64,000 bases of DNA from Shinisaurus crocodilurus (lineage: Eukaryota > Chordata > Lepidosauria > Squamata > Shinisauridae), in contig CM037877.1 of the NCBI GenBank assembly GCA_021292165.1, positions 127,414,402 to 127,478,401 on the forward strand, given 5' to 3'. Made by a program: the position numbers and the translations under genes. Below the pieces are notes generated by a model. The model was not told the DNA's origin and did no database searches. It saw only the letters and a program-made list of their open reading frames with translations. How positions within the stretch are numbered: the first letter of the stretch is position 1; each line of letters opens with the position of its first letter. Positions 359 through 45,302 of the stretch are shown one piece after another.

Positions 359-1118
359 TGTGAAGGACCAGCACCTGGGTCCTTTGCGTGAGTTCGGCGC
401 TTAACGGGTTAACCAGTGCCGCGTTACAGCCCGTACAAGCAAGAGGAATCACCTAGGAGGTTTCTAAACACACAAAAGCCTTTAAACTACCAAATAAGGC
501 TTTTATTTGTTTACACAAGATATGGATCGGAACTAACAGCTTTCTAGGAATTACTACAACGTCAATAAGACCTGACATGACCTTTAAGTTTATCAATGAA
601 CAGGCTCAGGCTAGTGCATTTGGATTAGTCAGTTACCTTAGATCAGAGACATCAGGTTAGTCAGTTTCAGCCTAGCTCCGGGTCTGTCCGATCCGGGGAA
701 AGAAACAGCTTACTCCAGCCGCTGCTGGAGGGTGGTTCGTGCTCAAAGCACCCTGGGTTCCCAACAACCCTTTTCCGGAAGGGAGAGGGGTTTTCTACCC
801 CTGAGTTCCCGCTCTCCCGCCCCTTAGGTCAGGTGGGGCTTATTGCCTGCCCCTTCGTGTCAGGTGGGCTTATTCCTGCCCGGGAAGAAGGTGACGTATT
901 GGATACTTTACAGCTCTTTGAGACTGCCCTGTCAGGTTGATGGTCTTGATGGTCCTTTCCTGGGTTTTGTGGATTACAAGCGAGATCCTCCTTTGCTGGA
1001 ATGCTGGTCTGTCTGGCTGCTTCCCTGTAACCCAATCCCCCCTTCTCGCCCCCCTCCCCTGGAGGACGGAGACTGGGGTGTGCGTGTACATGTATACTCA
1101 TGTCAGGCTTTCTCCACA
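359..1118 (-). repeat. Element A 3' LTR
   Basis: On the minus strand it begins TGTGGAGAAAGCCTGA and ends in TTCACA, giving the TG...CA ends of an LTR. It pairs with 5878-6647. Clear differences from its partner are the lack of a 10-nt stretch (ggaaactccg) found near 5999 in the other copy, and a substituted patch near 760-790. A polyadenylation signal AATAAA is at 502-507 (minus strand). Confidence 0.92.
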
Positions 1119-1169
1119 CCCTTCCCTTTGAAAAAAGATGGCATTGGGTCCCACCACCCCAATCCCTAT

Positions 1170-1676
1170 CTAACTGTCTCCCACTGAGAAAGCCCGGGAC
1201 AACCCATCTGCCACGATGTTGTCCTTGCCCTTGATGTGTTCCACTGAAAAATCAAAATCCTGCAGGGCTAAGCTCCACCGCAGTAACTTCTGGTTGGATC
1301 CCTTCACCCTGTCCAACCAACACAAGGGGGAATGGTCGGTCTGCAACAAGAACCGGCATCCCCAAAGGTAGGGGCGAAGCTTGGTCACTGCCCATACTAT
1401 TGCCAAACATTCCTTTTCGACAGTGGCCAGGTTCCGCTCCCGGGGCAAAAGTTTTTTACTCAAGTAGGCGACAGGACATAGCCCTTGCCCTGGCCGTTCC
1501 TGCAGCAAGACGGCCCCCATTCCCGCTTCTGAGGCATCTGTCTGCAGGACAAAGGGGGCTTCGAAATCAGGCGCTTGCAGCACAGGGGCTGCCATCAAGC
1601 TGGCCTTCAATCCTTCGAATGCTGCCTGGCAAGCAGCTGACCACTGGACTTTGACAGGCTGCCGCTTCCTACACAA
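1170..1676 (-). pseudogene. Element A RNase H segment of pol
   Basis: A 168-residue open segment holds the RT-RNase H connection and the RNase H domain of the retrotransposon polymerase, which degrades the RNA strand during cDNA synthesis. Visible signature residues are D47 in QTDAS, the KECLAI glutamate and D114 in TDHSPL, then VADGLSR near the C-terminus, so the catalytic acids look preserved here. It is cut off from the upstream RT by a short deletion relative to element B near 1745-1750 that shifts the frame, so it is not a separate gene. The stop near 1170 is the natural end of pol, about 50 bp from the LTR. Confidence 0.88.
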
Positions 1677-1718
1677 ATCCGTCAGGGGGCGGCTAGCTGG
1701 CTAAAGTGGGGCACAAAT

Positions 1719-2280
1719 TTACGATAGTAGCCAGCCAGCCCTAAAAAAGCTCTTCGTCTGGGGCTGGGGCCAGGTGCGGACAGACTCGATCTTCGCCTCC
1801 ACGGGCTTGACACTACCTCCCCCCACCCTGTGGCCTAGATACTCTACCTCCCCCTGCCCAACCTGACACTTCTTAGCCTTCACGGTCAGCCCCGCTTCCT
1901 GAATCCTCTGAAATACTTGACGGACATGTTGCAAATGCTGTTCCCAGGTGGAGCTGAAAATGGCGATATCGTCCAAGTACGCACAGGCGAACTCCCCCAA
2001 CCCATTTAGCATCCCATTTACCAGCCTTTGGAAGGTAGCCGGACTGTTCCGGACCCCGAATGGCAGGGTGGTGAACTGAAACAACCCTAGATGGGTCACA
2101 AATGCGGATTTCAACGCAGCATCCGGATTGAGGGGGACTTGCCAATAACCTTTGGTCAGATCCAGGGTAGTGATGTACTTGGCCCCCCCCTAACCATTCC
2201 AACAACACATCCATGTTTGGGATGGGGTAGGGATCAGGGACAGTCACTTTGTTGATCTTCCGATAATCTACACAGAACCG
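1719..2280 (-). pseudogene. Element A reverse transcriptase palm, frameshifted
   Basis: Two overlapping frames encode the RT fingers and palm: one from about 2247 (TVPDPYPIPNMDVLLE) and one from 2114 downwards (FVTHLGLFQFTTLPFG, then the catalytic YLDD). Comparison with element B shows three breaks: two bases lost near 2283-2288, one extra base in a G tract near 2188, and a deletion of roughly 15 nt near 1745. The domain is recognisable but cannot be read as one protein. In the element it directly follows integrase, which is the unusual Gmr1 order. Confidence 0.88.
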
Positions 2281-3944
2281 AACCCCCCCTCCTTCTTGGC
2301 TACTAGCACTATCGGAGAGGACCAGGGGCTAGAGCTGGGCACAATGACTCCAAGATCTAACATGGTTTGGATTTCGTCTGCAATGACCTGGGCATGGGGC
2401 CCCACTGCCCGGTAGGGTAGGGACTGTATAGGGGGGCTATTCCCCGTCTCAATGGTGTGTTGCACGAGAGTAGTGCATCCCGGGCGGTCGGAAAACATGG
2501 GCTGGAAGTCTTCTAGGACCTGGGTAATTTGTCTCTGTTGCTGTTCGGACAGGGAGGGCGACAATTGGATCTCATCCAACCCTCCCCCTACCCCCCATTC
2601 TGCCAACAAGTCCCCGTCAGAGGTTTCTGGTTCCACACATTCGTGTACGCCCCCTACCTTCGTTCCCCGTTCCACATACAATTTTAACATATTTACATGA
2701 AATACCTTTTGCTTTCCCGGCTGTCCCGGAAAAGCCACTTGATAGTTAACCTCCCCCGACCTTCCAATCACAGTCCCCGGGCCCTCCCATTTCAAACACA
2801 ATTTGTCCGTTTTCAGGGGGCGCAGTACCAGCACTTGGTCCCCCACTTCAAAAGTCCGTGGCACGGCCGTCCGGTTGTACCACGCGCTCTGCCGTTGTTG
2901 CGCTGCTCCGAGGTGCTGCTGCGCCGTCTCTCGCACCTCCCGGAGGACAGTTTGGAGATGTTGCATGAAGGCATGAACCGGCATGGAAGGTTCTGCTGCA
3001 ACCCCCTCCCATTCCGCCCGCAAAAGGGCCAAAGGTCCCCTTAGTTCCCTCCCAAACATCAACTCGTTGGGGGAGAATCCCAGGCTCTCCTGGGGGGAGT
3101 CCCGGTATGCAAACAACAGATAGGGGAGCGCTTGATCCCAAGTCCCGGGATGTTTAGCTGCGTAGGCTCGGATCATTTTTTCCAAAGTCTGGTTGAACCG
3201 CTCCACTAGCCCATTAGTCTCATGATGATAGGGCACCGAAGTTAGGTGCTCCACACCCCCCAATTCCCACATCTTTTTAAACAGTTTGGACACGAATCCC
3301 GTGCCACAGTCCGAAACCACCGTGCGGGGCATTCCCAAGCGGGCAAAAAGAGAGAGGAGAGTCTTAGCCAGGCTAGTAGCAGAGATGGAGGCTAGGGCAA
3401 AAGCCTCGGCATAACGAGTGGCAAAGTCAACGACAGTCAGTATGAACTTCTTCCCCGTCTTGGTGGGGGGATTCAAGGGTCCTACAATGTCCAACCCTAT
3501 TCTCTCAAAGGGGGTGCCCACTATGGGTAGCTGTTGAAGGGGGGCTTTGGGGTGGTCCCGGTTGTGTCCCACCCGCTGACAGACATCACAGGACCGACAG
3601 TACTCGTTGACTTCGTTCGCCACCATGGGCCAGTAAAAACCTTCTGTCACTCTGGCAAGTGTCCGTTTTTGTCCCAAGTGACCCCCCCAGCCTACATCAT
3701 GGGCTAACTGCAGTACAGCCTGGCGATACCTGGAGGGCACAACTAATTGCCTCTTTCGTGACTGGAGACCAAGTTCAGTTTTTGGGCTAAACTCCCTGTA
3801 AAGGGCCCCCGCTTCCCACAAGAACCTCTCTGACAGGTCTACTGCCTCACACGCTCGGCCGGCCCGATCCCGACATTCTTGGAGGGACGGGTCCTGCCGC
3901 TGTTCTTCCTGGAAAGCCTTTTGAGTCCCAAAATCTCGGGCCAT
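2268..3944 (-). pseudogene. Element A integrase followed by N-terminal reverse transcriptase
   Basis: A 558-residue open frame. Order: HHCC zinc-binding domain (H82, H89, C119, C122); catalytic core with D152 (LDIVGPL), D212 (SDCGTGF) and E248 (GLVERFN), which is the DD35E spacing of retroviral-type integrases; a GPY/F-like module around 385-423; then the start of RT (PYRAVGPHAQ and SPWSSPIVLVAKK, about 509-551). The integrase joins cDNA to host DNA; RT would copy the genomic RNA. The frame ends early at 2268 where two bases are missing relative to element B. The first ATG (3944) overlaps the gag-protease frame by 106 bp in the -1 frame, so pol may be expressed by frameshifting. I saw no convincing slippery heptamer, so this is open. 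Confidence 0.93.
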
Positions 3945-5773
3945 TGGGGCAAATCCCCCTTGGCCATCCTCCTTAACTGGAGCCGGGGGGGGGGCAACGA
4001 ACGTTTGGCGGCCGGTGCCGCTTTAGCGCGACTGGGTTTAATAGTCGGGGAACTGGGAGGCTGCGGGGCAGGGGCTTGTCTGGCTTGCCGACGTGTCACT
4101 ACCCCCATCTTGACCTGGGCAGCCCGGAACGCTATGTCGTTCCCAATAATGATCCCCCACTCTTGCTTCCCATGCACGATGACATCCACCTCCCCTTCCC
4201 ATCCCCTGTACTTGACCCAAACCCGGGCGAGGGGTACAGCTATGTTGGGAGAGTTATAGGGTTTTATGGCGCAGGTGCGCCCTTTTAGCATCTGGCTCTT
4301 CTTTACCTTACTCCGAGGTAAAGCAGTAATGTCCGCCCCGGTGTCCCTATACCCCATATGGGAAACATTGTTCACAGAGATGGACTCACAGAATTTGTTC
4401 TGGCTCCAACGCAGTTGCTCTGGTGACGCAATTTTCATCAGAGACGCTTGTGAGATGGCCCCAAGGGAATGCTGTCCTCCGCTTAACCGGGGCGGTGTCG
4501 CATCCTCCGTTTCTTCCTCCAGGGATGAGACCGACTGCTGGTCCTCCTCCTGTTCCTCCGGCTGCCGGGCCTCGGGAGCGAGCATCCTTCCTACCTTGCC
4601 CGGATTTGTTTTGGGGTTGCGGTTCCTCGCGAGGAGTTTGGGGCAACTTCTCTTGAGGTGACCCAATTCTTTGCAATAAAAACAGCCACTGGTGCTGGTG
4701 CTGGGGCTCTCCTTGGGCTTACTTGGGGCTCCCTCCCGAGGTCTGGGGTTGCCCTTCTCCGCGCCCCCTCTGGCCCCGTTCCGACTGGGATTGCCCCCCT
4801 TGCCTCCCTTGGGCTGCCGATACAGCCCCATCTGATCCGCCAGTTTGCCCATTTCCCGACAGTTTGGGGGATCCCGGTCTCGCACGGCCATGGCCAAATC
4901 CTCCGGAATAGTGGCACAGAACTGCTCCTGGATCAGGAGCTCCCGCACCTCTGCCAAGGTGGTCTTCCCGGTAGCCCCGATCCACGCATCCCAAACCTGC
5001 CCCAGATGCGCCATCCAGGAGGCATACGTGTCCCCTGGGGAGGGCTGCCTGTAACGAAATTTACGGCGACAGTGTTCGGCTGTGAGGGCAAAACGCTCCC
5101 TCACAGCTTCCTTGAACGCAGCATAGTCCAAGGGGGCAGTTTGGGTATGAATGCCTAAGAGATCGGCCAGCTCCCCGCTGACCTGTGTCCGTAAGGCGGA
5201 CATCCTTAAATTGTCCGGCACCCTCTGTTCCTGGCAGGCGGCTTCAAACAGTGTGAAAAAGATCAACACATCCTGCCCAGGTTTGTAGGTGGGAAATTGT
5301 TTCCTGTCCCATTTGGGGGTCGGAGTGCTCCCGCTCTGGGGTGCAATGGGTCCCCCCCCTCCGGTGCCCGCGGTCAGCCTCGCTAATTCCAGCTGCATCT
5401 GCAGCGCCGCTGGTTGATGCTTAACCATCTCCTGCTGATGCCGCATCACCTCCCTGGTCTGTTGCCAATTCAGATTGGGGAAGAGAGCATCCAGATCTTC
5501 CCCTCCTATGGCTCCACCAGCAACCCCTCCATCGAGGTCCTCCTCCAACCCGGGGTCTATCCTGTCGCCTCTCCTGAGGCTGCTTGTTAAGCTGGGGCGG
5601 CCCCACTGTTTGGGTCCCTGCCCCTCCAGCAAGGATGAGGGGGCTCCCTCCCCCTCTTGGTGTTTAGTCTTCGGCCGCACAGTCCACTCCATTGTGGAGA
5701 CCTGGCTCCCCTCTCTTCTTGGGGTCTCTGGACTGCTCCCTAGCTCTAGTTGTTCCTGGCTAAGGCTATTCAT
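3839..5773 (-). CDS. gag: Element A Gag-protease with SCAN-like capsid
   Basis: An uninterrupted 644-residue frame starting MNSLSQEQLELG, about 105 nt inside the 5' LTR. Order: acidic and glutamine-rich N-terminal part with a probable coiled coil (about 103-133, QQTREVMRHQQEM...); capsid segment (about 155-315) whose C-terminal half (216-315) reads like a SCAN domain (FKEAVRERF, LIQEQFCATIPEDL); one CCHC knuckle (C364, C367, H372, C377) for RNA packaging; and an aspartic protease with the DTGAD active site (477-481). Gag forms the particle and the protease cuts the polyproteins. The link between SCAN domains and Gmr1-like capsids is a published proposal; assigning this region to it is my reading. 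The start matches the homologous ATG at 39879 in element B. Confidence 0.92.
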   Translation of the reverse strand: MNSLSQEQLELGSSPETPRREGSQVSTMEWTVRPKTKHQEGEGAPSSLLEGQGPKQWGRPSLTSSLRRGDRIDPGLEEDLDGGVAGGAIGGEDLDALFPNLNWQQTREVMRHQQEMVKHQPAALQMQLELARLTAGTGGGGPIAPQSGSTPTPKWDRKQFPTYKPGQDVLIFFTLFEAACQEQRVPDNLRMSALRTQVSGELADLLGIHTQTAPLDYAAFKEAVRERFALTAEHCRRKFRYRQPSPGDTYASWMAHLGQVWDAWIGATGKTTLAEVRELLIQEQFCATIPEDLAMAVRDRDPPNCREMGKLADQMGLYRQPKGGKGGNPSRNGARGGAEKGNPRPREGAPSKPKESPSTSTSGCFYCKELGHLKRSCPKLLARNRNPKTNPGKVGRMLAPEARQPEEQEEDQQSVSSLEEETEDATPPRLSGGQHSLGAISQASLMKIASPEQLRWSQNKFCESISVNNVSHMGYRDTGADITALPRSKVKKSQMLKGRTCAIKPYNSPNIAVPLARVWVKYRGWEGEVDVIVHGKQEWGIIIGNDIAFRAAQVKMGVVTRRQARQAPAPQPPSSPTIKPSRAKAAPAAKRSLPPPRLQLRRMAKGDLPQWPEILGLKRLSRKNSGRTRPSKNVGIGPAERVRQ

Positions 5774-5877
5774 TTTGCTTTCTCCTGACTACTTCCCAGC
5801 AATCCGCTAGCCTGCCCTAGACCCTGTTAGTTCCATCCGTTAACTATAGTTTCCAATTGTCCCGTCGTCTGCCACCA

Positions 5878-6647
5878 TGTGAAGGACCAGCACCTGGGTC
5901 CTTTGCGTGAGTTCGGCGCTTAACGGGTTAACCAGTGCCGCGTTACAGCCCGTACAAGCAAGAGGAACCACCTAGGAGGTTTCTAAACGCACAAAAGGAA
6001 ACTCCGCCTTTAAACTACCAAATAAGGCTTTTATTTGTTTACACAAGATATGGATCGGAACTAACAGCTTTCTAGGAATTACTACAACGTCAATAAGACC
6101 TGACGTGACCTTTAAGTTTATCAATGAACAGGCTCAGGCTAGCGCATTTGGATTAGTCAGTTACCTTAGATCAGAGACATCAGGTTAGTCAGTTTCAGCC
6201 TAGCTCCGGGTCTGTCCGATCCGGGGAAAGAAACAGCTTACTCCAGCCGCTGCTGGAGGGTGGTTCGTGCTCAAAGCACCCTGGGTTCCCAAGAACCAAC
6301 AGAGGGAGGGGAGAGGGGTTTTCTACCCCAGGGTTTCCCGCTCTCCCGCCCCTTAGGTCAGGTGAGGCTTATTGCCTGCCCCTTCGTGTCAGGTGGGCTT
6401 ATTCCTGCCCGGGAAGAAGGTGACGTATTGGATACTTTACAGCTCTTTGGGACTGCCCTGTCAGGTTGATGGTCTTGATGGTCCTTTCCTGGGTTTTGTG
6501 GATTACAAGCGAGATCCTCCTTTGCTGGAATGCTGGTCTGTCTGGCTGCTTCCCTGTAACCCAATCCCCCCTTCTCGCCCCCCTCCCCTGGAGGACGGAG
6601 ACTGGGGTGTGCGTGTACATGTATACTCGTGTCAGGCTTTCTCCACA
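5878..6647 (-). repeat. Element A 5' LTR
   Basis: Direct partner of 359-1118. On the minus strand it begins TGTGGAGAAAGCCTGA at 6647 and ends TTCACA at 5878, immediately followed by the TGG of the primer-binding site. AATAAA is at 6030-6035 (minus strand). It presumably holds the promoter, but I see no unambiguous TATA box. Confidence 0.92.
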
Positions 6648-6758
6648 GTTTTTATTGTTGGTTTTATCTTGATTTTATTGTATGCACTGTTGTGAACTGC
6701 CCAGAGAGCTTCTTTGGCTGTGCGGCGGTATAGAAATGAAATAAATAAATAAATAAAT
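6648..6758 (+). repeat. LINE/SINE 3' tail ending in (AATA)n
   Basis: The phrase 'gaactgcccagagagctt' followed by 'ggcggtatagaaatg' and (aaat)n is a very common squamate 3' tail, probably of an L2-type LINE or a SINE using it. A second copy is at 59131-59190. Element A lies directly against its 5' side. Confidence 0.55.
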
Positions 6759-6870
6759 GCAACCCAAAATAGCATTTGCCTTTTTTGCAGCGACATTACA
6801 TTGCTGGCTCATATTCAGCTTGTGATCTACAAACATTCCAAGATCCATTTCAGTATTACACTCATTGACT
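6759..6870 (-). mobile_element. CR1 LINE ORF2 fragment
   Basis: On the minus strand it encodes [16 protein letters not shown] and [12 protein letters not shown], matching the better copy at 21292-22329. It is a short relic, truncated at both ends. Confidence 0.8.
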
Positions 6871-6897
6871 GGGTTCACATGACATGCTGGATGCTGG

Positions 6898-6900
<3 letters not shown>

Positions 6901-6930
<30 letters not shown>
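6901..6930. repeat. (TG)n microsatellite
   Basis: Fifteen uninterrupted TG units, followed by cgcgc. Confidence 0.97.
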
Positions 6931-6935
<5 letters not shown>

Positions 6936-7064
6936 TTAAGGAGGTTATATCCCATTACATACAGCCATCAAGGCCCCTTAGCGGGACTGAAGTTCCAGCT
7001 CTGCTACCATACTGCTGCTGCTGCTGTAGCATAACAGAGATGTGGCCGGTAATCCCCTCAGTCT

Positions 7065-7760
7065 GAGGGTAGGTTTGCACGACACGGTAAGCCAGACTGC
7101 AGCAGTCGGCTTACAAGTCACCCTCCCCCCGATGTGCCTGACAGACGATAGGGCTCATCACGGGTAGGGTGCACCCTGCCTCCCCCTCCAGGCCTCCTGC
7201 AGGTATCCCACAGGACACCGCAGGAGCACCAACATTTCCCCCCTCCTCACCGCCACTTGTCAGCAGGGGCGGAGACAGAAGGAGCAGGGATCACAAACAG
7301 CCCCCACCCAGACTCGTGAGGAGACCTCGCAAGCCACAGTAAGGGCTGTTGAAGCTGCTGCTGATCTTGGGTGCTGTCCTGCTGTGTAGAGTGTGCCCCC
7401 CCATCCGTTGCTGCTGTCCCTTGGCGACAGCACCGGACGGGGGGCTCAGCTGCGTTCTGCTTGGCCTAGTCCCGAGTAGGCTGTGCAGAGTGCCGCTCCT
7501 CCCATCTGGTGGTGGCAGTGAGGAGCATGATCCCAGGTGCCGCTTTGACATTTTAGGGGTGGCTGTCAGTGGCGCTTGTCCAGAGCCACTGGGCAAGAGA
7601 GGCACTGGGCACGCCTTTTTGCCACTCTTGCCAAGCACCTCTGAAGTGGTTTGGGTTACCCCTGGGCTTGTCATGTCCTCTGGGTCCGGATGACGCAGCA
7701 AGCCCAGGGGTGGCTACTAAACCCAGAAACTGGGTTTATAAGCCACCCGAATAAGCCATG
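7065..7760. repeat. Unclassified GC-rich interspersed repeat
   Basis: The segment around 7066-7260 shares an ordered series of phrases with 14228-14460 ('gtttgcac.acac', 'tcctgc.ggtatccca', 'gggacac.gca...gagcac'), so it is a repeat and not unique DNA. The rest to 7760 is GC-rich with no recognised domain. It ends in 'tttataagccac' close to the MITE at 7774. It may be the inside of an element whose ends resemble 'gactgggttcacat' (6868) and 'gtgtgagcccaatc' (8010-8023), but that is inference. Confidence 0.4.
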
Positions 7761-7773
7761 GCAGGTTCACATG

Positions 7774-7942
7774 CAGGGTCGGTGCAAGGCAGTTTGGTGC
7801 CCTAGGCAAGATCAGATATTTAGCGCCCCCCTCTTCCCACTTGAGCCCTCCCTCCCTCCCTCCAGCCCTATGCTCCTGGTGCTCCCTTTAGCCCGGCGCC
7901 CTAGGCAGCCGCCTAGTTGGCCTAATCGTAGCACCGGCCCTG
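7774..7942. mobile_element. hAT-type MITE, 169 bp
   Basis: Terminal inverted repeats CAGGGTCGGTGC and (reverse complement of the right end) CAGGGCCGGTGC, flanked by a perfect 8-bp duplication TTCACATG (7766-7773 and 7943-7950). It also contains 'gccctaggca' near both ends. The longer copy at 33368-33845 shares the same ends. No coding capacity. Confidence 0.9.
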
Positions 7943-8027
7943 TTCACATGACACACACGACAAGCCCCCCTGGCTTATAAACCAGGGGGGCTTGTTATGT
8001 TGTGTGTGAGCCCAATCACTGAGAGTC

Positions 8028-8095
8028 ATCCTAGTGGTGCAGGGAGTAGAATGCCTGGGCTCTGCTGCCTAAATCCCTGGTTCGAGTCCCCTGCT
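8028..8095 (+). repeat. tRNA-derived SINE head fragment
   Basis: A near-consensus RNA polymerase III box B (ggttcgagtcc, 8079-8089) lies about 45 nt after an A-box-like 'tagtggtgcaggg'. No acceptor stem or complete cloverleaf is apparent, so this is a SINE relic and not a tRNA gene. Confidence 0.5.
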
Positions 8096-9297
8096 GTTTT
8101 ACAGGTATCAATCTCTATTTAGTACTTAGTGGCTAATCCAGTTGAGCCAGCAACCTTCTCACACTTGGTCCCCGTGAGCTGTAAGTGACCCACTGGTGTT
8201 TAATACACTGATTTACCACATACTGATCTGCTTGTGCAAGCCCTTCTGAACTTCATAGGAGCTGAGTAAGAAAACTTCATCACAGATTCTGACATGATGA
8301 AGGGCCTTCTAGCATCTCTAGTCCAGAGACTAAGTCTGTCCCTAGGGAGAATGCAGGCATTAGGAGTGACAAATCAGATTGAGAGAGGCCTACACCTGTG
8401 TGGGTTGAGCGGCTCCCTGGGGAGGGCAGCAGTGCTGATTTCAGAGTGGCAGCAGAGCCTCCCTTTAAAAAGCATTTTCTTTACTTTAATCCCCCCCCCC
8501 CCCAATTTGGGATTTTTGCAGGCATTGGAATAAGCAGCTTTCCCTAAGGCAGAGAAGAGCTTGGGCTCAATAGGAATTAATTTGCCTAATTAGTGTCCTT
8601 GGAAAAAGACTGCAGACCACCGGGGTGTCGCCAAAAAGAGATCTCTCTCTGCAAAGATTTGCTATGGCTTCTGGAGCTAGAGGAGGCCAATGCTTACTAG
8701 ATTGGTTTTGTAGTAAAACTTCCACCAATTGAATTTCAATGGTATTTGAATGGTATTTTGGGATCCAATTCACACTGAAATGGGATAGTGAAGAGCCTTA
8801 TGCTGATGGTAAAGGCCACAGCAACTCTGGTGCTAACAGGAGCTCCTCAGCCCCACCCTGCCTTGGAAGGCAACAAGAGCTCCTCTGCTTTTTCTGGTTC
8901 CAGACTCCCAGCAGTCTGAATAAGAGGCGGCGGCATGGCACTGCAGGTAGGCTGGTCAACAGCTTCTGCTTTGGGCTCTTGGCTGATCTTCAAACCTGCT
9001 TGCTGAATCTTTCATTTGCCTTTGTCTTGCACTGCTCTGACTCTCCTTGAATCCTAATGTTTTGGAGGATTGCAGTATATTTTTGGATTTAGTGTGTGTG
9101 CTGAATGCTTGTAATATTTATATGCAGGGTATATATTTATATTATATTAACTGGCCTGCAAGTTACTGTAAGGATTCCCATATCATTTCTTTTGTCTCCC
9201 TGCTTCCTGCCTGGCTGTGCACCTGTCCTCTGTTTGCTTGCGTGAAAGGACTGCCAACCGGTCCTTTACTCAAGACCAGAGATCAAAGGTGCAAAAC
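8096..9297. other. No recognised feature
   Basis: No gene, repeat family or array could be supported. A 13-nt C run is near 8490. Short open frames lack domains and splice context. Confidence 0.5.
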
Positions 9298-9790: not shown

Positions 9791-9919
9791 GCATGCAAAT
9801 GGCTGTGGCAGGGAGACATCAAGATATAGGAGCTTCTGAGGGGCCATCGAAGCTATGTGCATTTTATTTTGCATTTCCCAGCCCCCAGCTGGGATTATAC
9901 TTGTTTACACGTGAGGAGA

Positions 9920-12348: not shown

Positions 12349-12830
12349 TTGGATGAAGTAAAAAAAGCCATTAATCAAATGAAGAATAACAAAGCTAGTG
12401 GACCAGATGGGATTCCTGCTGAAATCTTTAAAGAAGGGGGGCCCGAACTTGTACAACATCTTCATAAACTCATTGAAAAAATCTGGATAAGAGAAGAGAT
12501 CCCAGAAGACTTCAGGGATGCCATAATTATCACCCTCTTTAAGAAGGGTGATAGAACAGACTGTGGAAACTATCGGGGCATTTCTCTCTTAGCTACTGCA
12601 GGTAAAATATTTGCCAGGATTCTCGTAAACCGTCTTCTATCTATTTCAGAAGAGATCCTCCCTGAATCTCAATATGGTTTCCGCCCCTCTAGAGGAACAG
12701 TGGACATGATTTTTACTGCATGTCAGCTCCAAGAAAAATGCCGGGAGCAAAATCAACCCCTTTATATGGCATTTATTGATCTGGCTAAGGCCTTTGATAC
12801 TGTAGACCGAACAGCTCTCTGGATTATCAT
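12349..12830 (+). pseudogene. LINE reverse transcriptase, N-terminal half
   Basis: About 160 residues of non-LTR RT fingers and palm, ending at DRTALW just before the inversion breakpoint. The palm aspartate in FIDLAKAFD is present. The frame runs on to 12966 through inverted sequence that has no meaning as protein. Confidence 0.88.
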
Positions 12831-12834
12831 CAGC

Positions 12835-13143
12835 ATACTGAAGTTCCACAACAGAGGTTGTAATTACCTTACTTTTTGCTTTCAGCCTGCTGAGATTAAA
12901 AAGCTTTCCATCTGTTCGATATATAATTCCCACACTAGTGGGAAGTTTCCCCTTGACAAGATGTAAAATCATGGCGATGAAAATAGCAAATAATGTTGGG
13001 GCGATAACACATCCCTGTTTAACACCTGATCCCACTTTAAATGGAGCACCATAAGAGCCGTTGTTGTCCAAAACCGTTGCCGTCATGTTGTCATGGAGAA
13101 GTCGCAAGATATTCACAAATTTATTGGGGCATCCAATTTTCAT
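12835..13143 (-). pseudogene. LINE reverse transcriptase, inverted middle segment with YADD
   Basis: Minus-strand frame with GCPNKFVNILRLLHDNM, SGVKQGCVIAPTLFAIF and LQYADD, the next RT motifs after the plus-strand segment. Its order and both junctions fit a simple in-place inversion of about 0.3 kb. Confidence 0.88.
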
Positions 13144-21207: not shown

Positions 21208-22350
21208 AATCATAGAATCATAGAAAAGTAGAGTTGGAAGGGGCCTACAAGGCGATCGAGTCCAACCCCCTGCTCAATGCAGGAATCCAGGTCAAAGCAT
21301 CCCAGACAGATGGCTGTCCAGCCGCACCTTGAATGCCTCCAGAGTGGGAGAGCTCACCACCTCCCTAGGTAGTTTGTTCCATTGTCTTATTGCTCTGACA
21401 GTCAGGAAATTTTTCCTGATGTTTAGGTGGAATCTAGGTTCCTGTAACTTGAGCCCATTATTCCGTTTCCTCCAAACTGGGATGATCGAGAAGAGATCCT
21501 GGCCCTCCTCTGTGTGACATCCCTTCAAATACTGGAAGAGTGCGATCATATCTCCCCTCAGTCTCCTCTTCTGAAGGCTAAACATGCCCAGTTCTTTCAG
21601 TCTCTCCTCATAGGGCCTTGTTTCCAGTCCCTTTATCATCCTTGTTGCCCTCCTCTGAACCCTCTCCAGTTTGTCTATGTCCTTCTTAAAGTGTGGTGCC
21701 CAGAACTGGACGCAGTACTCAAGATGAGGCCTAACCAGTGCCGAGTAAAGGGGAATTATCACTTCACGCGATTTGGAAGCTATACTACTATTAATGCAGC
21801 CCAAAATAGCATTTGCCTTCTTTGCAGCCACATCGCATTGCTGGCTCATATTCAGTTTGTGATCTACCACAATTCCAAGATCCTTCTCACTGGTAGTATT
21901 GTTGAGCCAAGTGTCCCCCATTCTGTAACTCTGCATTTGGTTTCCTCTCCCTAGGTGCAGCACTTGGCATTTATCCCTATTAAATCTCATTCTGTTGTTT
22001 ACAGCCCAGTGCTCCAGCCTATCGAGGTCACTTTGAATTTTGTTTCTGTCTTCCAGAGTATTAGCTGTTCCACCCAACTTTGTGCCATCTGCAAATTTGA
22101 TAAGCATTCCCTGTACCTCCTCATCCAAGTCATTAATAAAAATGTTGAAGAGCACTGTGCCCAGGACCGAGCCCTGTGGTACCCCGCTCGTTACCTCTCC
22201 CCAGTTTGAGAAGGAACCATTGATAAGCACTCTTTGAGTCCGATTCTGTAGCCAATTGTGGATCCACCTGATAGTTGTTCCATCTAGCCCACTTTTAGCT
22301 AGCTTGCTAATCAGGATATCATGAGGCACTTTGTCGAGATCTCCTTTGTA
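21208..22350 (-). mobile_element. CR1 LINE, 5'-truncated
   Basis: Minus-strand CR1 holding the last third of ORF2 and the typical 3' end (the 'agttggaaggggcctacaag' block and ATTCTATG-type terminal units around 21208-21260). The 5' end is lost around 22350, just upstream of a DKVPHDIL-like motif. It is the best preserved CR1 here; related scraps lie at 6759, 21030, 34086 (5' part) and 59276. Confidence 0.92.
21292..22329 (-). pseudogene. CR1 reverse transcriptase C-terminal part
   Basis: A 345-residue open frame covering the palm and thumb of CR1 ORF2. GVPQGSVLG is at 49-57. The catalytic box reads FADG (79-82) where FADD is expected, so the second catalytic aspartate is lost. The C-terminal domain contains [19 protein letters not shown] and ends SHLSGML. 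An intact ORF2 also has an endonuclease and is roughly three times longer, so this is a dead fragment despite its open frame. Confidence 0.92.
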
Positions 22351-36630: not shown

Positions 36631-36762
36631 ACAGTAGTTCCTGAATGCTTTTGGGGGGTTGGCAGGGGTTTTATTTGCAGGATCTGCAAAGGTGTTGTGC
36701 ATATACCTTCTCAGTGCTCTGTTTCAATGCAGTGGAGCATAGCAATTTTAAATGCTTGAAGA

Positions 36763-36936
36763 CAGGCCTGTGGCTCACGCTGGCTCAGCTTGTCTGAGCA
36801 TGGAAAGCTAAGCAGGGTCAAGCCTGGTTGTTACTTGGATGGGAGACCCCTCCTCTAGTTTCCTGCATTGAGCAGGGGGTTGGACTCGATGGCCTCGTAG
36901 TAGGCCCCTCCCAACTCTATGATCTATGAATCTATA
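36763..36936 (+). mobile_element. 5S-rRNA-derived SINE with CR1-like tail, copy 1
   Basis: The head resembles 5S rRNA, including its internal promoter region (ggaaagctaagcagggtcaa, then 'ggttgttacttggatgggag'). The tail (gggttggactcgatggcc ... ccaactctatgat) is the CR1 3' end, implying use of CR1 machinery. It is too altered and fused to be a 5S gene. Confidence 0.88.
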
Positions 36937-37083
36937 AGCTGATAACTGGCTTTGGTGAATGTTGGGTAGATCTACAGCAGGTGTGGGCAAACTTTTTTCC
37001 ACCAAAGCCTTCATTCCATCAGAGGTAAACTTTCAGGAGCTACATGTCTGTAGCTGGTGGGGTTAGAAACACCCTACTCACAG

Positions 37084-37085
<2 letters not shown>

Positions 37086-37123
<38 letters not shown>
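37086..37123. repeat. (CT)n microsatellite
   Basis: About 19 CT units. The long open frames around it (37044-37739) are products of low-complexity sequence. Confidence 0.97.
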
Positions 37124-37124
<1 letters not shown>

Positions 37125-37125
<1 letters not shown>

Positions 37126-38927
37126 GTGTTTGGGGTGGTGATGATACTAAAAGGGAGGTGGTAGTGGTGATGCACTCCACACTCTTTCCCACACTCACAT
37201 ACCCACATCCATCCCCCCCACACACACATATGGGAAGGAATGGGGGGGTTATGCTAGGGGATACATACAATAAGGCCAAGGGTCAGAAGTTGCTGACCCC
37301 CCCCCCCCCCGATCTAAAGCTTCTGCTCCTACTTTCTTTAGTTTTCAGCAAGGTCCTTACCTGGCAAGTAGAAGTTGTAGCAGCACAAAGAGAGAGGAAA
37401 AGGATGAGGATTACCCCTTCCCTCCCACTTTTTTGCTCTGGCATGCTGAATACACATTGCAATTGCAGGAGTCCTCAAGGGAGCGACATCTCCGTGGGTC
37501 CCCCAGGCCTTCTGTTTCAGGGCTTTGCAACTCAGCACACTGGGGGACGAAGAGGGAGGCGGGGGGGGGGGGGGAAGGGAGGACCACCTTACTTCCTGTC
37601 CTGTCCCTGTATGCCACCGCCACTGCTCCCACTGCTGCTTACCAGGGAAGGAAAGGGACAGAGTGTCCGGGAGCGGATGAAGCGGGCTATGGGGGACTGG
37701 GGGAGAAACGCCACAAAGTCTTCTCTGTCTGTATTTTGATCTGAGTAGGAGAATGATTTGGGGGCTTTAAAAGCCTCAAAAATTCTTCTCTGAGCCTGGC
37801 TTGGGAGAACTTCTCTGATAACTCTTTGAAGTAGTCCCTTAAAATAATTTTTTTTTAAAAAAGCCTTAACAACCTACCAGTGAAGCCACAGCGCTGACTG
37901 TTGGCTGGCTGCTGTAGGAGGCAGAGCGCTGGACTACGTGGACTTGGTCTGATCAAACAAAGCAATTATTTTCATATGCTGCGTCACAGAATTGTCCCTG
38001 TCAACTGATGGAGCTACGAGTCACAAGAGACTAGAAGAAACAGGGCTGAATTAACCATTATGTTAATCAGGTACACTTCATAACAGGAACCCACTGTATG
38101 GGATTTTTAGTATGGTGGAATTACTCTAGTTTTCCAGTGGGCAAGGTGCTTCCTGTTTCATTTACCTGCAGTCCCCCCCTCCATAATAGAGGGGACATCT
38201 CTTCCTTCATTTAAAGACAGTAGCAAAAAAGCAATGACCACATCTCCAGAGAAAGATCATCCCTAGAGCCCCTTTTGTGGGTGAGGCAGCACAACGCTGA
38301 TTTTTTTGCAAAATGCAATGACTGCTGTGGGGGCACATGCTAATGAATACAGTGCAGCATCCACCATGTTTATAACATGACTGAGCCCCACACACAAATG
38401 CAATTGTGGGAGAAGTAAGAGGAGTTGGAAAGGTCATGTGTATTCTATTGTTTCTGTTTGTAGTGAGAGAGCATGACACATCGCCTCAGCGCACTGCTGC
38501 AGTCGTGGGGGTAATGGGAGGGCATGCTGCAGTTTCAGTTTCCTTTTTCTCTTTTCTTTTTGAGTCTGCTGACTGCATGCACACTTTCAATGGTACACAG
38601 CAATGGAAGTTTAAAAATAAATTGTGTGGCAATTCACAGCTGCTCTTATCGATATGTACCTAGTCAAAAGTAGCTGCCAAACAAAAAATCACAGAGGATA
38701 AAGGTGTGTGGGAGAGAAGGTGGGGAAGTTGTGGGCCTGCTGCCGCCTGCTGCCACCAACCTCTCCCTGCCCAGGTCAGAGCCATGGGGTGAATCTAGCA
38801 ATGCCAGCTCCCAAAGGAAGAAGGGCGCATGGGGTTGGACACCAGGGATCAGTTGAATCCCTTCCTCAATGATACCCCCCCTCCACACAAAAGCATTTTC
38901 CAAAAGCCAACACACCCCTCTCCCACG
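37125..38927. other. No firm feature
   Basis: C and G runs at 37299-37310 and 37561-37573. The phrase 'gcgctggactacgtggacttggtctgatc' region near 37928-37955 resembles a LINE-type tail. No gene could be supported. Confidence 0.4.
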
Positions 38928-38997
38928 CTACGCTGGCTGGGGCATGCTGGGAGTTATAGGCCAAAAACATCTGGGGGCCCAAGGTCGGAGAACACTG
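38928..38997. mobile_element. Right half of fold-back MITE H
   Basis: From 'gctacgctggctggggcatg' to GGTCGGAGAACACTG; the left arm is absent. Element B inserted only 12 bp downstream. Confidence 0.8.
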
Positions 38998-39009
38998 TTT
39001 TAAAGAAAC

Positions 39010-39775
39010 TGTGGAGAAAGCCCAACACAAGTCTGCACACACACACACAGTCTTCCCCTAAGGGAGGGGGCGAGGGAGGAGGGATGAAGTCACAGGAGAA
39101 GCAGCCAGACCGGTCGTCATCCCCAACAAGGAAGAGTCTCGGTGGAGATCCACAAAAACCCAGGAAGGACCATCAAGGACCATCAAACTATCAGGGCAGT
39201 CTCAAAGAGCTGTGAAGTACCAGTATGTCACCTTCTCCCCGGGCAGGAATAAGCCCACCTGACACGAAGGGGCAGGCATAAGCCCCACCTGACCTGGAGG
39301 GTGGGGAGAGCGGGAACTCAGGGGTAGAAAACCCCTCTCCCTTCCGGTAGAGGGTTGTTGGGAACCCAGGGTACGTCGGGGCCAGATTCGTCCTTCAAGC
39401 GGCAGCCCGAGTAAGCCATTCTCATCCCCAGATCGGCCGACCCGGAGCCAGGCTGAAACTGACTAAGCGTAAAGTCTCTGATCTGAGGTAATTGACCAGA
39501 TTCAATCCGCTAGCCTAGGAGCCTGTTCATTGAGTAACGCAGGGGTCAACTAAGGTTGTGTTGACATTGTAGTATTCCTGGAGAGCTGTTAGTTCCGCTC
39601 TGTGTTTTGTGTAAACAAATAAAAGCCTTATTTGGTCATTTAAAGGGCTTTGGTTTCCTCTTGTGCGCGAAAGCCTCTCAGGTGGTCGCCAGCGCTCATA
39701 CGGGCTGTAACTCAGTGCCGGTTAACCCATTAAGCGCCGAACTCACGCAAAGGATCCTGCTAGTGATCCTTCACA
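39010..39775 (+). repeat. Element B 5' LTR
   Basis: TGTGGAGAAAGCCCAAC ... GATCCTTCACA. AATAAA at 39618-39623. A small palindromic stretch 'aaggatcctgctagtgatcctt' sits at the 3' end. Confidence 0.94.
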
Positions 39776-39795
39776 TGGTGGCAGACGACGGGACA
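39776..39795 (+). promoter_or_regulatory. Element B primer-binding site
   Basis: TGGTGGCAGACGACGGGAC directly follows the LTR CA, the usual position where a tRNA 3' end (CCA) primes minus-strand DNA. I could not assign the tRNA. The same sequence is present in element A. Confidence 0.75.
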
Positions 39796-39878
39796 ATTGG
39801 AAACCACAATTAACGGACGGAACTAACAGGGTCTAGGGCAGGCTAGCGGATTGCTGGAAAAGCGCTCAGACCAAAGTA

Positions 39879-41468
39879 ATGAATAGCCTGAGCCAGGAAC
39901 AGCTGGAGCTAGGGAGCAGCCCAGAGACCCCAACCAGAGAAGGGAGCCAGGTCTCCACAATGGAGAGGGTAGTGCGGCCGAAGATTGCAAACCAGGAGGG
40001 GGGGAGCCCCCTCATCCTTGCTGGCAGGGCAGGAACCCAAGCAGTGGGGTAGCCCCAGCCTTACGAGTAGCCTCAGGAGAAGCGAGAGGAGGGACCCCGA
40101 GTTAGAGGAAGACCTCGACGGAGGGGTTGCTGGTGGGGCCATAGGAGGAGGAGGCTTAGATGCCCTCTTCCCCCAACTTAATTGGCAGCAGACCAGGGAG
40201 GTGATGCGACATCAACAAGAGATGATCCAGCATCAGCAAGCGGCGCTGCAGATGCAGCTGGAGTTGGCCAGGCTGACCGCGGGCGCCGGACAGGGGGGAC
40301 CCCCTACACCCCAGAGTGGGAGCACCCCGACCCCTAAATGGGACAGGAAGCAATTCTCCACCTACAAGCCCGGGCAAGACGTGTTGATCTTCTTCACCCT
40401 GTTCGAAGCTGCCTGCCTGGAGCAGAAGGTAGACAATTTGAGAATGTCTGCCTTGAGGACTCAGGTCAGCGGGGAGCTGGCTGATCTCCTGGGTATTCAC
40501 ACGCAAACTGCCCCCTTGGACTATGTGGCATTCAAGGAGGCTGTGAGGGAGAGGTTTGCCCTCACAGCCGAACATTGTCGCCGTAAATTTTGTTACGGGC
40601 AGCCTTCCCCAGGGGACACGTATGCCTCCTCGATGGCGCACCTGGGGCAGGTTTGGGATGCATGGATTGGGGCCACCGGGAAAACCACTTTGGCGGAGGT
40701 GCGAGAACTCATGATCCAGGAACAATTTTGTGCCACCATCCCAGAGGATTTGGCTACGGCGGTGAGGGACCGGGATCCCCCAAACTGTCGGGAGATGGGC
40801 AAGTTGGCCGACCAAATGGGGCTATATCGGCAGCCCAAAGGAGCGAAGGGGGGCAACCTCAGTCGTGGCGGGGCCAGAGGGAGCGCAGAGAAGGGCAACC
40901 CCAAACCTCGGGAGGGAGCCCCAAGCAAGCCCAAAGAGAGCCCCAGCACCAGTGGCTGTTTTTACTGCAAGGAACCGGGTCACCTCAAGAGGAGTTGCCC
41001 CAAGCTCCTCGCGAAGAACCGAAACTCCAAGACATCCCCGGGCAAGGTGGGAAGGATGCTCGCTCCAGAGTCCCGCGAACCGGAGGAACACGAGGAGGAT
41101 CAGCAATCAAGCTCGTCCCTAGAGGAGGAAGTAGAAGATGCGGCGCGGTCCCTGATGAGCGGAGGACAGCATTCCCTTGGGGCCATCTCGCAAGCATCCC
41201 TGATGCGCATTGCCTCGCCGGAGCAACTGCGTTGGAGCCAGAACAAATTCTGTGAGTCCATCTCTGTGAACAATGTTTCCCATGTGGGGTATAGGGACAC
41301 CGGGGCGGACATAACTGCTTTACCTCGGAGTAAGGTAAAGAAGAGACAGCTGTTAAAAGGGAGTACCTGTGCCATAAAGCCCTATAACTCCCCCAACATA
41401 GCTGTTCCCCTTGCCCGGGTCTGGGTCAAGTACAAGGGATGGGAAGGGAAGGTGGATGTTATAGTACA
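39879..41468 (+). pseudogene. gag: Element B Gag-protease with SCAN-like capsid, frameshifted
   Basis: The ATG at 39879 (MNSLSQEQLELG) matches element A. An indel in the G tract near 39995-40010 shifts the frame, after which an open frame (39985-41619) carries the capsid. In that frame: SCAN-like segment about 178-278 (FKEAVRERF, MIQEQFCATIPEDL), CCHC knuckle C325, C328, H333, C338, and protease DTGAD 438-442. One extra A near 41487 shifts the frame again inside the protease; its C-terminal part continues at 41468-41659 (IIIGNDIAFRAAQVK). Two shifts therefore separate the start, the capsid and the end of the protease. Confidence 0.9.
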
Positions 41469-41688
41469 TGGACAACAAGAATGGGGGAATCATAATTGGG
41501 AACGACATTGCGTTCCGGGCTGCCCAGGTCAAGGTGGGGGTGGTGACACGACGTCAGGCCAAACAAGCCCCTGCCCCACAGCCTCCCAGCCCCCTGACCC
41601 CCCATCCCGGTTGTGGTAAAGTGACCCCGGCAACCAACTGTTCTCCGCCACTTCGGTGAGGGAGGAGGACCAAGGGGGGTTCGCCCCA

Positions 41689-42850
41689 ATGGCCCGAGAT
41701 TTTGGAGCTCAAAACTTTTCAAAAGGTGTTCCAGGAGGAGCAGCAGCGCGACCCGTCCCTCCGAGAATGCCGGGATCGGGCCGGTCAAGGGTTGGGGGCA
41801 GAGGACCAGTCAGAACAGCTTTTGTGGGAAGCAGGAGCCCTTTACTGAGAATTCTGCCCAAAAACCGAACCGGGTCCCCAGCCGAAGAAAAGATAATTAG
41901 TTGTGCCTGCAAGGTACCGCCAGGCTGTGCTGCAGTTGGCCCACGATGTAGCGTGGGGAGGTCACTTGGGACAGAAACGGACATTAGCCAGGGTGATAGA
42001 AGGGTTCTATTGGCCCATGGTGGCGAATGAAGTCCGAGAGTATTGCCGGTCCTGCGATGTCTGCCAGCGGGTGGGGCATAACCGGGACCACCCGAAAGCC
42101 CCCCTTCAGCCCCTACTCATTGTGGGCACCCCTTTTGAAAGGATAGGGGTAGATATTGTGGGACCCTTGAATCCCCCCACCAAGATGGGGAAGAAGTTTA
42201 TACTGACTGTTGTTGACTTTGCCACTCGCTATGCCGAGGCTTTTGCCCTAGCCTCCATTTCCGCTCCCAGCCTGGCTAAGACTCTCCTTTCTCTTTTCGC
42301 CTGCCTAGGAATGCCCCACACGGTGGTTTCGGACTGCGGCACGGGATTCGTGTCCAAATTGTTTTAAAAAATGTGGGAACTGGGGGGTGTGGAGCATCTG
42401 ACTTCGGTGCCATATCATCACGAGACAAATGGGCTGGTGGAGCGTTTCAATCAGACTCTTGAGAAAATGATCAGAGCTTATGCGGCTAAGCACCCTGGGA
42501 CTTGGGATCAAGCTCTCCCCTACCTGTTGTTCGCATACCGGGACTCCCCCCAAGAGAGCCTGGGATTCTCCCCCAACGAACTGATGTTTGGGAGGGAGCT
42601 AAGGGGACCTTTGGCTCTGTTACGGGTGGAATGGGAGGGGGTTGCCGCAGAATCTTCCATGCCGGTGCATACCTTCATGCAGCACCTCCAAACTGTCCTT
42701 CGGGAGGTGCGGGAGACGGCACAACAGCATCTCGGAGCAGCACAACCGCGGCAGAGCGCGTGGTACGGACGGCTGTGCCACGGACTTTTGAAGTGGGGGA
42801 CCAGGTGTTGGTACTGCGCCCCCAAAAAACGGACAAATAGTGTTTGAAAT
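41689..42850 (+). pseudogene. Element B integrase, interrupted
   Basis: The counterpart of the element A pol start (MARDFG) is at 41689, followed by frameshifts before 41903. From 41903: HHCC finger H14, H21, C51, C54; catalytic D84 and D144; then a stop at 42365-42367 caused by a base change, with the same frame resuming at 42371 and the catalytic E (GLVERFN, 24th residue after the restart). The stop thus falls between the second D and the E of the DD35E triad. A further frameshift near 42760 loses the end. Integrase precedes RT, as in element A. Confidence 0.92.
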
Positions 42851-44480
42851 GGGAGGGTCCGGGGACTGTGATTGGAAGGTCGGGAGAGGTGAACTATCAA
42901 GTGGCTTTTCCTGGACAGCCGGGGGGCAAAAGGTATTTCATGTGAATATGTTAAAATTGTATGTGGAACGGGGGACGAAGGTGTGGGGAGTGCAGGAATG
43001 TGCGGATCAGGGAACCGCTGACGGGGATTTGTTGGCCGAATGGGGGGAAGGGGGAGGAATGGATGAGATCCAACTGTCCCCCTCTCTGTCGGAACAGCAG
43101 CGGCGGCAGATTATCCAGGTCTTAGAGGACTTCCAGCCTATGTTCTCTGACCGTCCAGGATGCACCACACTCACACAACATACCATTGACACGGGGAATA
43201 GCCCCCCTATACAGTCCCTACCCTACCGGGCGGTGGGGCCCCATGCCCAGATCATTGCCGATGAAGTCCAAGCCATGCTGGACCTTGGAGTCATTGTCCC
43301 CAGCTCTAGCCCCTGGTCCTCCCCTATAGTGTTAGTAGCCAAGAAAGATGGGGGTGTTCGGTTCTGCGTAGATTATCGAAAAATAAACAAAGTGACTGTC
43401 CCTGACCCATACCCCATCCCCAACATGGATGTGCTGTTGGAACGGCTAGGGGGGGCCAAGTACATTACTACCCTGGACCTGACGAAGGGTTATTGGCAGG
43501 TCCCGCTTGATTCGGATGCTGCATTGAAATCCGCATTTGTGACCCATCTGGGGTTGTTCCAATTCACCACCCTCCCTTTCGGAGTCCGGAACGGTCCGGC
43601 TACCTTCCAGAGGCTGGTGAATGGGATGCTGAATGGGCTGGGGGAGTTCGCCTGTGCATATCTGGACGATATAGCCATTTTTAGCTCCACCTGGGAGCAG
43701 CATTTGCAACATGTCCGCCAGGTATTTCAGAGGATTCAGGACGCCGGGCTGACTGTGAAGGCAAAAAAGTGCCAGGTCGGGCGGGGAGAGGTGGAGTATC
43801 TTGGACACAAGGTGGGGGGAGGTAGTGTCAAGCCCCTAGAAGCCAAGATCGAGTCGGTTCGCACCTGGCCCCAACCCCAGACGAAGAAGCAGGTTCAGGC
43901 TTTTTTAGGACTGGCTGGCTATTATCGTAAGTTTGTGCCCCATTTTAGCCAGCTAGCCGCCCCCCTGACAGATTTGTGCAAGAAGCGGCAACCCGTTAAG
44001 GTCCAGTGGTCTGCCGCTTGCCAAGCAGCGTTCGAGGGATTGAAAGCCTGCTTGATGGCAGCCCCTGTGCTGCAAGCACCAGATTTTGAAGCCCCTTTTG
44101 TCCTGCAGACGGATGCCTCGGAAGCAGGGATGGGAGCCGTCTTGCTGCAGGAGCGGCCAGGGCAAGGGCTGTGCCTTGTCGCCTTTCTAAGCAAAAAACT
44201 TTTGCCTCGGGAGCGGAACTTGGCCACTGTCGAGAAAGAATGCCTGGCAATAGTGTGGGCAGTGACCAAGCTTCGCCCCTATCTGTGGGGCCGCCGGTTC
44301 CTGTTGCAAACCAACCATTGCCCCTTGTGCTGGCTGGATAGGGTGAAGGGGTCCAACCAAAAGTTGTTGCGGTGGAGTTTAGCCCTGCAGGATTTTGATT
44401 TTTCAGTAGAGCACATCAAGGGTAAGGACAACATCGTGGCAGATGGGTTGTCCCGGGCTTTCTCAGTAGGAGACAGTTAG
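42840..44480 (+). pseudogene. pol: Element B reverse transcriptase-RNase H, long open frame
   Basis: A 546-residue uninterrupted frame. The first 40 residues continue the integrase GPY/F region (KVFHVNMLKLY). RT follows: PYRAVGPHAQ (129-138), VRFCVDYRKIN (173-183), LDLTKGYWQ with D213, FTTLPFGVRN, and catalytic YLDD (274-277). The connection and RNase H follow: QTDAS (D425), KECLAI (E467), and TNH (N492) where element A has TDH, so an RNase H catalytic aspartate appears replaced. It ends VADGLSRAFSVGDS just before the 3' LTR. It has no start codon of its own in family terms and would be made as part of pol. Confidence 0.9.
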
Positions 44481-44531
44481 ATGGGGATTGGGGTGGTGGA
44501 CCCCAATGCCATCTTTCCCCAAATGGGAGGG

Positions 44532-45302
44532 TGTGGAGAAAGCCCAACACAAGTCTGCACACACACACACAGTCTTCCCCTAAGGGAGGGGGTGAGGGAG
44601 GAGGGATGAAGTCACAGGATAAGCAGCCAGACCGGTCGTCATCCCCAACAAGGAAGAGTCTCGGTGGAGATCCACAAAAACCCAGGAAGGACCATCAAGG
44701 ACCATCAAACTATCAGGGCAGTCTCAAAGAGCTGTGAAGTACCAGTATGTCACCTTCTCCCCGGGCAGGAATAAGCCCACCTGACACGAAGGGGCAGGCA
44801 TAAGCCCCACCTGACCTGGAGGGTGGGGAGAGCGGGAACTCAGGGGTAGAAAACCCCTCTCCCTTCCGGTAGAGGGTTGTTGGGAACCCAGGGTACGTCG
44901 GGGCCAGATTCGTCCTTCAAGCGGCAGCCCGAGTAAGCCATTCTCATCCCCAGATCGGCCGACCCGGAGCCAGGCTGAAACTGACTAAGCGTAAAGTCTC
45001 TGATCTGAGGTAATTGACCAGATTCAATCCGCTAGCCTAGGAGCCTGTTCATTGAGTAACGCAGGGGTCAACTAAGGTTGTGTTGACATTGTAGTATTCC
45101 TGGAGAGCTGTTAGTTCCACTCTGTGTTTTGTGTAAACAAATAAAAGCCTTATTTGGTCATTTAAAGGGCTTTGGTTTCCTCTTGTGCGCGAAAGCCTCT
45201 CAGGTGGTCGCCAGCGCTCATACGGGCTGTAACTCAGTGCCGGTTAACCCGTTAAGCGCCGAACTCACGCAAAGGATCCATTCCTGCTAGTGATCCTTTA
45301 CA
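44532..45302 (+). repeat. Element B 3' LTR
   Basis: Near-identical to 39010-39775. Visible differences include an extra 'attcc' near 45280, g/a at 45119 and TTTACA instead of TTCACA at the end. AATAAA at 45140-45145 would be the polyadenylation signal of the element transcript. Confidence 0.94.

What the first reader, a model, noticed from the sequence alone, without database searches (positions are those of the whole stretch)
359..45302. Two Ty3/gypsy elements with integrase upstream of reverse transcriptase
In both elements A and B the order is Gag, protease, integrase, RT, RNase H. In element A, integrase (DD35E: D152, D212, E248) and the start of RT lie in one 558-residue frame; in B, RT-RNase H starts with the integrase GPY/F tail. 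Most Ty3/gypsy elements place integrase last; this order is known from Gmr1 and relatives. Two independent copies agree, so it is not a local rearrangement.
Basis: partly seen in the sequence, partly recalled or inferred. Interest (0 to 1): 0.8.

Follow-up and report, generated by a model that had tools for sequence, protein, structure and literature searches.

The report
Gmr1-type retrotransposons, integrase before reverse transcriptase
Two damaged copy-and-paste mobile elements in a reptile-like genome carry their enzymes in an unusual order, integrase before reverse transcriptase, which is the known hallmark of the Gmr1 group, so the finding is real but ordinary.

Summary
Element A (359-6647, minus strand, 6,289 bp) and element B (39010-45302, plus, 6,293 bp) are LTR retrotransposons with order Gag, protease, integrase (IN), reverse transcriptase (RT), RNase H. 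The order is not local: 30 of 30 fetched genome loci (B among them) have IN upstream of RT, and 78 of 78 listed matches (A among them) to an IN-plus-RT-start query run through both. Of 115 listed relatives holding both domains, 114 are IN-first. RT and IN trees both put them with IN-first elements, away from RT-first chromoviruses (100/99, 100/100). This is the Gmr1 lineage, in print since 2002. New member of a known kind. The unusual thing lies outside the window: in a sister family many copies share one RT-removing deletion (junction 19 hits, intact equivalent 2), and one has LTR stretches 98.9% alike, so RT-less, IN-bearing copies seem to have moved, presumably with RT supplied by other copies.

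The parts
5878..6647 (-). element A 5' LTR
   Evidence: pairs with 359-1118, 97.6%, TG...CA
359..1118 (-). element A 3' LTR
3839..5773 (-). element A Gag-protease frame (644 aa): SCAN residues 233-316, zinc knuckle 363-379, protease motif RDTGAD (DTGA at 477)
   Evidence: SCAN E 3.8e-9
2268..3944 (-). element A integrase (H2C2, DD35E core, SH3/GPY-F-type C-terminal domain) plus start of RT, 558 aa
1719..2328 (-). element A, rest of RT, broken over two frames (YLDD in 1719-2189)
1170..1700 (-). element A RNase H end of pol
   Evidence: RT_RNaseH E 2.3e-37 (frame 1170-1676)
39010..39775 (+). element B 5' LTR
   Evidence: pairs with 44532-45302, 99.3%
39776..39793 (+). putative primer binding site TGGTGGCAGACGACGGGA directly after the 5' LTR; same letters after the 5' LTR of A
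39973..41619 (+). element B Gag (SCAN, zinc knuckle) and start of protease
   Evidence: SCAN E 6.8e-8
41897..42847 (+). element B integrase, split over two frames
42840..44480 (+). element B integrase tail, RT and RNase H, 546 aa
44532..45302 (+). element B 3' LTR, preceded by purine-rich AAATGGGAGGG
39005..39009 (.). target-site duplication GAAAC, left copy (right copy 45303-45307)
   Evidence: flanks

Best explanation
A and B are decayed insertions of one high-copy Gmr1-type Ty3/gypsy family. Shown: LTRs, IN-before-RT order, gypsy-type RT and IN, SCAN-type capsid, many copies. Inferred: the RNA is read as one Gag-PR-IN-RT-RNase H polyprotein, cut by the protease inside a Gag particle; RT copies the RNA from a primer bound just after the 5' LTR; IN, released from upstream of RT, joins the DNA to the host with a 5-bp staggered cut (GAAAC at B). 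The order is inherited by the whole clade and does not change the chemistry; it is not a local rearrangement and not a sign of Ty1/copia descent.
For: LTR pairs and B's 5-bp duplication. Domains. Best solved relatives by sequence are Ty3 RT (E 1.4e-96) and, for IN, the Ty3 Gag-Pol chain (E 1e-45). Order kept in 30 of 30 fetched loci, B being one, and 78 of 78 listed matches, A being one. Of the 238 listed proteins hold IN and RT and 114 of these are IN-first; with an RT-first query from the same genome, 114 of 120 listed hits are RT-first and 6 undecided. RT tree split 100/99; IN tree 100/100. Open frames of 1,500 aa or more are listed in 14 of 79 rows and 9 of 78 (1 and 2 of them with a stop inside the match); that is about the span from A's first Gag codon to its last RNase H codon (4,604 nt), so one Gag-Pol frame is inferred, as in fish Gmr elements with single frames of 1,506-1,634 aa (PMC11117352, passages).
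Against: No named Gmr1 sequence was compared. RT-first rows were mostly chromoviruses (many with a chromodomain), Ty3 (RT tree only) and one partial row; Mag, CsRn1 and other gypsy clades were not sampled. P0164 is RT-first yet sits inside the IN-first clade, its RT beside IN-first P0144: read here as a rearranged partial, unproved. A lacks an exact 5-bp duplication. The primer tRNA was not identified. On the SCAN link: PMC11011659 (passage) reports that its metavirus capsid models did not detect human SCAN proteins, though it cites the proposed origin.
Confidence: 0.95

Rival explanations
1. The order is a local rearrangement, nesting or assembly error of ordinary RT-IN gypsy elements.
For: Both elements are decayed; a single rearranged member exists elsewhere (P0164).
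Against: 30 of 30 loci and 78 of 78 listed matches share the order; IN-first proteins carry names from turtles, frogs, fish, molluscs and sponges.
Confidence: 0.01
2. They are Ty1/copia elements, or chimeras that took a copia integrase.
For: The order IN-RT-RNase H is the copia order (PMC2774666 passage).
Against: IN carries H2C2 and SH3_Tf2-1/p58_C modules and its best solved relative is Ty3; RT's best solved relative is Ty3; RT and IN trees give the same split. Copia rows were not in the trees.
Confidence: 0.01
3. IN-first elements are not one origin; several gypsy lineages moved IN independently and this family belongs to a separate one.
For: P0164 shows that positions can differ within the clade; outgroups here are few.
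Against: All IN-first rows fall on one side of a strongly supported branch, with P0164 the only RT-first row among them.
Confidence: 0.03

Closest known systems
Gmr1 lineage of Ty3/gypsy (Goodwin and Poulter 2002: title seen in the reference list of PMC2774666, paper not read; order stated in PMC8220671 and PMC2774666, passages read)
   Same: IN upstream of RT; gypsy RT and IN; known from vertebrates and marine invertebrates
   Different: Not compared letter by letter; different host
SCAN-bearing Gmr elements of frogs (PMC4131045, passages) and Gmr1-like elements tied to SCAN zinc-finger genes of lizards (Emerson and Thomas 2011, not held; seen through passages of PMC4592553, PMC3406341 and PMC3424704)
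   Same: SCAN domain in Gag
   Different: No difference was looked for beyond this
Gmr families of pufferfish relatives (PMC11117352, passages)
   Same: Consensus 6.1-6.5 kb, one Gag-Pol frame, young insertions
   Different: LTRs 337-518 bp there, 760-771 bp here
RT-first H2C2 elements of the same genome (L056, L058, L067; chromovirus-like)
   Same: Ty3/gypsy, H2C2 integrase
   Different: RT before IN

Membership tests
Gmr1 lineage | integrase upstream of RT in an LTR element | tested here: met
Gmr1 lineage | Ty3/gypsy-type RT and RNase H | tested here: met
Gmr1 lineage | gypsy-type IN: H2C2, DD35E, SH3/GPY-F-like C-terminal domain | tested here: met
   (A reads WEGPG, a GPY/F-like motif)
Gmr1 lineage | RT and IN cluster with other IN-first elements | tested here: met
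   few kinds of RT-first rows
Gmr1 lineage | clusters with the named cod Gmr1 sequence | not tested
   no protein named Gmr1 appeared in the lists
Gmr1 lineage (tetrapod) | SCAN-type capsid in Gag | tested here: met
   E 3.8e-9 and 6.8e-8, both above Pfam's cut-off; SCAN of ZNF24, weak, E 8e-4
Ty1/copia | copia-type RT and IN | tested here: not met
   modules and best solved relatives are gypsy-type; no copia row in the trees

The most novel reading that the evidence does not exclude
Because IN precedes RT, Gmr1-type elements can lose RT yet keep Gag-PR-IN in frame, and in this genome such RT-less, integrase-bearing derivatives arose in three sister families; in one they outnumber RT-bearing copies and moved after losing RT, with RT supplied by other copies.
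Probability: 0.45. Interest if true: 0.5.

Novelty: new member of a known kind. Interest (0 to 1): 0.28.

Why it matters
The window adds a young, high-copy family to a described lineage and shows once more that its capsid is of the type proposed to have given rise to the SCAN domains of zinc-finger regulators. The sister families may matter more: they would show that an integrase-first layout lets an element shed RT while keeping capsid, protease and integrase.

Tried and rejected
Self-priming: the 25 nt after B's 5' LTR have a longest complement of 6 nt in the LTR, reached by 459 of 500 shuffles; not supported. Primer tRNA: a pattern for a tRNA ending GTCTGCCA gave 32 hits (backwards control 10); 0 of 32 continue with the CGTC that the site would need; primer unknown. 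Programmed frameshift between Gag-PR and IN: some copies have one frame of 1,500 aa or more (14 of 79 and 9 of 78 rows), so the breaks in A and B are best read as decay. Literature searches for RT-less, IN-keeping LTR elements returned 2, 0, 0, 4 and 4 papers; passages of two were read (PMC5738225 describes non-autonomous barley families, among them one without RT and IN; PMC5753468 gave nothing relevant); the other eight were seen as listings only, so I make no claim that the thing is unpublished. A search for squamate, transposable element, gypsy and Gmr1 together gave 0 papers; Gmr1 with lizard gave 21 (20 listed), by title mostly unrelated, and beyond PMC4592553 and PMC3406341 none of them was opened. 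Emerson and Thomas 2011 is not held. The first RVT_1 family search returned 150 rows; the 8 fetched loci gave no hit to this family's Gag, IN or RNase H and one weak RT hit (L004, 53 aa, 36%), so it was dropped. Two searches not otherwise used: Rfam over the window, 0 matches; Pfam on eight other window frames.

Full report
What is there. The window lies in a 2.19-Gb genome of 1,490 contigs. Element A (359-6647, minus) and element B (39010-45302, plus) have paired LTRs of 760-771 bp. B has a clean 5-bp target duplication, GAAAC. A does not: the five bases at its two ends differ at two places. The LTR divergence (K2P 0.024 for A, 0.0066 for B) makes both fairly young; under an assumed 1e-9 changes per site per year that is about 12 and 3 million years.

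Coding order. Pfam finds, in order, SCAN and zinc knuckle, then H2C2 and rve, then in A the SH3_Tf2-1 and p58_C modules, then RVT_1 (scored in B) and the RT_RNaseH families. The protease was seen by motif only. A's RT carries YLDD, in a separate frame. Both elements are broken: A's pol lies in several frames, B's coding region in at least four.

Is it general? In the same genome, 79 matches to B's RT-RNase H frame were scored (9,851 first-look candidates) and 78 to A's IN-plus-RT-start frame (8,568 candidates). These are capped lists of best hits and include B and A themselves. All 78 cover the query from residue 1 to at least 554 of 558. The 30 best loci were fetched (L009 is B itself), and 30 of 30 have IN upstream of RT. 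Open frames of at least 1,500 aa are listed for 14 of 79 and 9 of 78 rows. As a contrast, the 30 best of 150 rows for Integrase_H2C2 were fetched. By best hits at E 1e-4, 3 of 30 are RT-first (L056, L058, L067); 3 show IN then RT (L040, L050, L059; L050 and L059 are 99.7% alike); 10 show IN then RNase H with no RT between in the stretch held (L042, L045-L049, L051, L055, L057, L060); 14 show neither, of which L054 has a weak RNase H match at E 1e-3. These were chosen by H2C2 score, not at random.

Relatives. From, 238 proteins were listed (120 per search, two shared; the searches passed 2,763 and 305). Both IN and RT were found in 115; 114 are IN-first. The exception, P0164, is RT-first but its RT sits beside IN-first P0144 on the tree, so it looks like a rearranged partial. 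From (query: the RT-first element L056, P0239), 114 of 120 listed are RT-first and 6 undecided. For the RT tree, rows with a long enough RT match (71 IN-first with window B, 106 RT-first) were thinned at 65% identity and a few added back, with three IN-less rows, Ty3 and P0164: 64 rows, 39 IN-first, 22 RT-first, 3 without IN. IN-first and IN-less rows stand apart from the RT-first rows, P0164 excepted, with 100/99 (bootstrap not fully settled). The IN tree was thinned likewise from 72 IN-first and 52 RT-first protein rows to 39 rows (17 IN-first with window A and four sister loci; 22 RT-first with P0164); the same split has 100/100, P0164 again on the IN-first side.

Known context. The order is the published mark of the Gmr1 lineage (PMC8220671 and PMC2774666, passages). 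[quoted passage not shown] Over half of frog Gmr elements carry SCAN (PMC4131045 passage). The Gag of A and B fits: Pfam SCAN E 3.8e-9 and 6.8e-8 and a weak hit of A's Gag to the solved SCAN of ZNF24 (E 8e-4). Against this, one survey's capsid models did not detect human SCAN proteins (PMC11011659 passage).

How it works. Most likely an ordinary LTR copy-and-paste cycle with a single polyprotein, as set out under best explanation. The primer site TGGTGGCAGACGACGGGA is the same in A and B, but no tRNA was matched and self-priming is not supported.

Outside the window. Among the fetched Gmr1-like sister loci, one family (copies mostly about 92-97% alike; L046 and L047 99.6%) holds eight loci (L042, L046-L049, L054, L055, L060) whose match to the RT-bearing copy L040 ends at the same base (2812) and resumes in RNase H (L074 base 832, with a 10-base overlap in the two rows worked out, L042 and L046; about 1.06 kb lost). 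The frame is open across the junction in the four copies looked at. The junction pattern hits 19 places and the matching intact pattern 2, both at up to 3 mismatches, backwards controls 0. The intact pattern was drawn from one copy and may undercount. Four of the 19 sit within 0.7 Mb on C16, and the one on C315 is a near copy of one on C1 (L046/L047), so local or assembly duplication explains part; three more are on small contigs; 11 lie dispersed on C1, C3, C4, C5, C6 and C10. One RT-less copy (L049) has LTR stretches 98.9% alike over 542 bp, so it looks recently inserted although copies 5-7% different from it share its deletion; gene conversion between its LTRs is not excluded. Its 3' LTR is cut short, so no target duplication could be read, and the flanks of the other copies were not held. 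A second family shares another RT-removing break (L051, L057; RT kept in L050, L059). In a third, L066 has no RT match over 7 kb (L071), and L063 and L065 match it to the end of the stretch held.

Verdict. The side finding is worth a separate look.

Noticed in passing
own genome, loci L042, L046-L049, L054, L055, L060 (breakpoint L040:2812 to L074:832): Sister Gmr1-like family in which one RT-removing deletion is shared by many copies (19 junction hits, 2 intact-equivalent hits); Gag, protease and integrase regions are kept, and one copy has LTR stretches 98.9% alike.
   Followed up: partly
L051, L057 against L050, L059; L063, L065, L066: Two further sister families with shared loss of RT.
   Followed up: partly
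proteins P0001, P0003, P0005, P0009: Rhineura and turtle proteins with Gag-PR-RT-RNase H but no integrase hit; could be predicted splicing or real loss.
   Followed up: no
window 344-358 and 6648-6662: Element A's two flanks show no exact 5-bp target duplication although its LTRs are 97.6% alike; possible recombination between elements.
   Followed up: no
window 39776-39800 and 5853-5877 (minus): Primer site shared by A and B for which no matching tRNA end was found.
   Followed up: partly
window 61800-62283 and 62883-63366: Inverted repeat of 484 nt with only 2 mismatches and a 599-nt centre; recent duplication or assembly artefact.
   Followed up: no
window 21292-22329 (minus) and 12349-12966 (plus): Reverse transcriptase fragments (RVT_1), probably LINE remains.
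   Followed up: no
L074 (G000:C4:95130700-95134200): The LTR after RT-bearing copy L040 is followed by leader-like sequence, so that copy may be part of a tandem pair.
   Followed up: no
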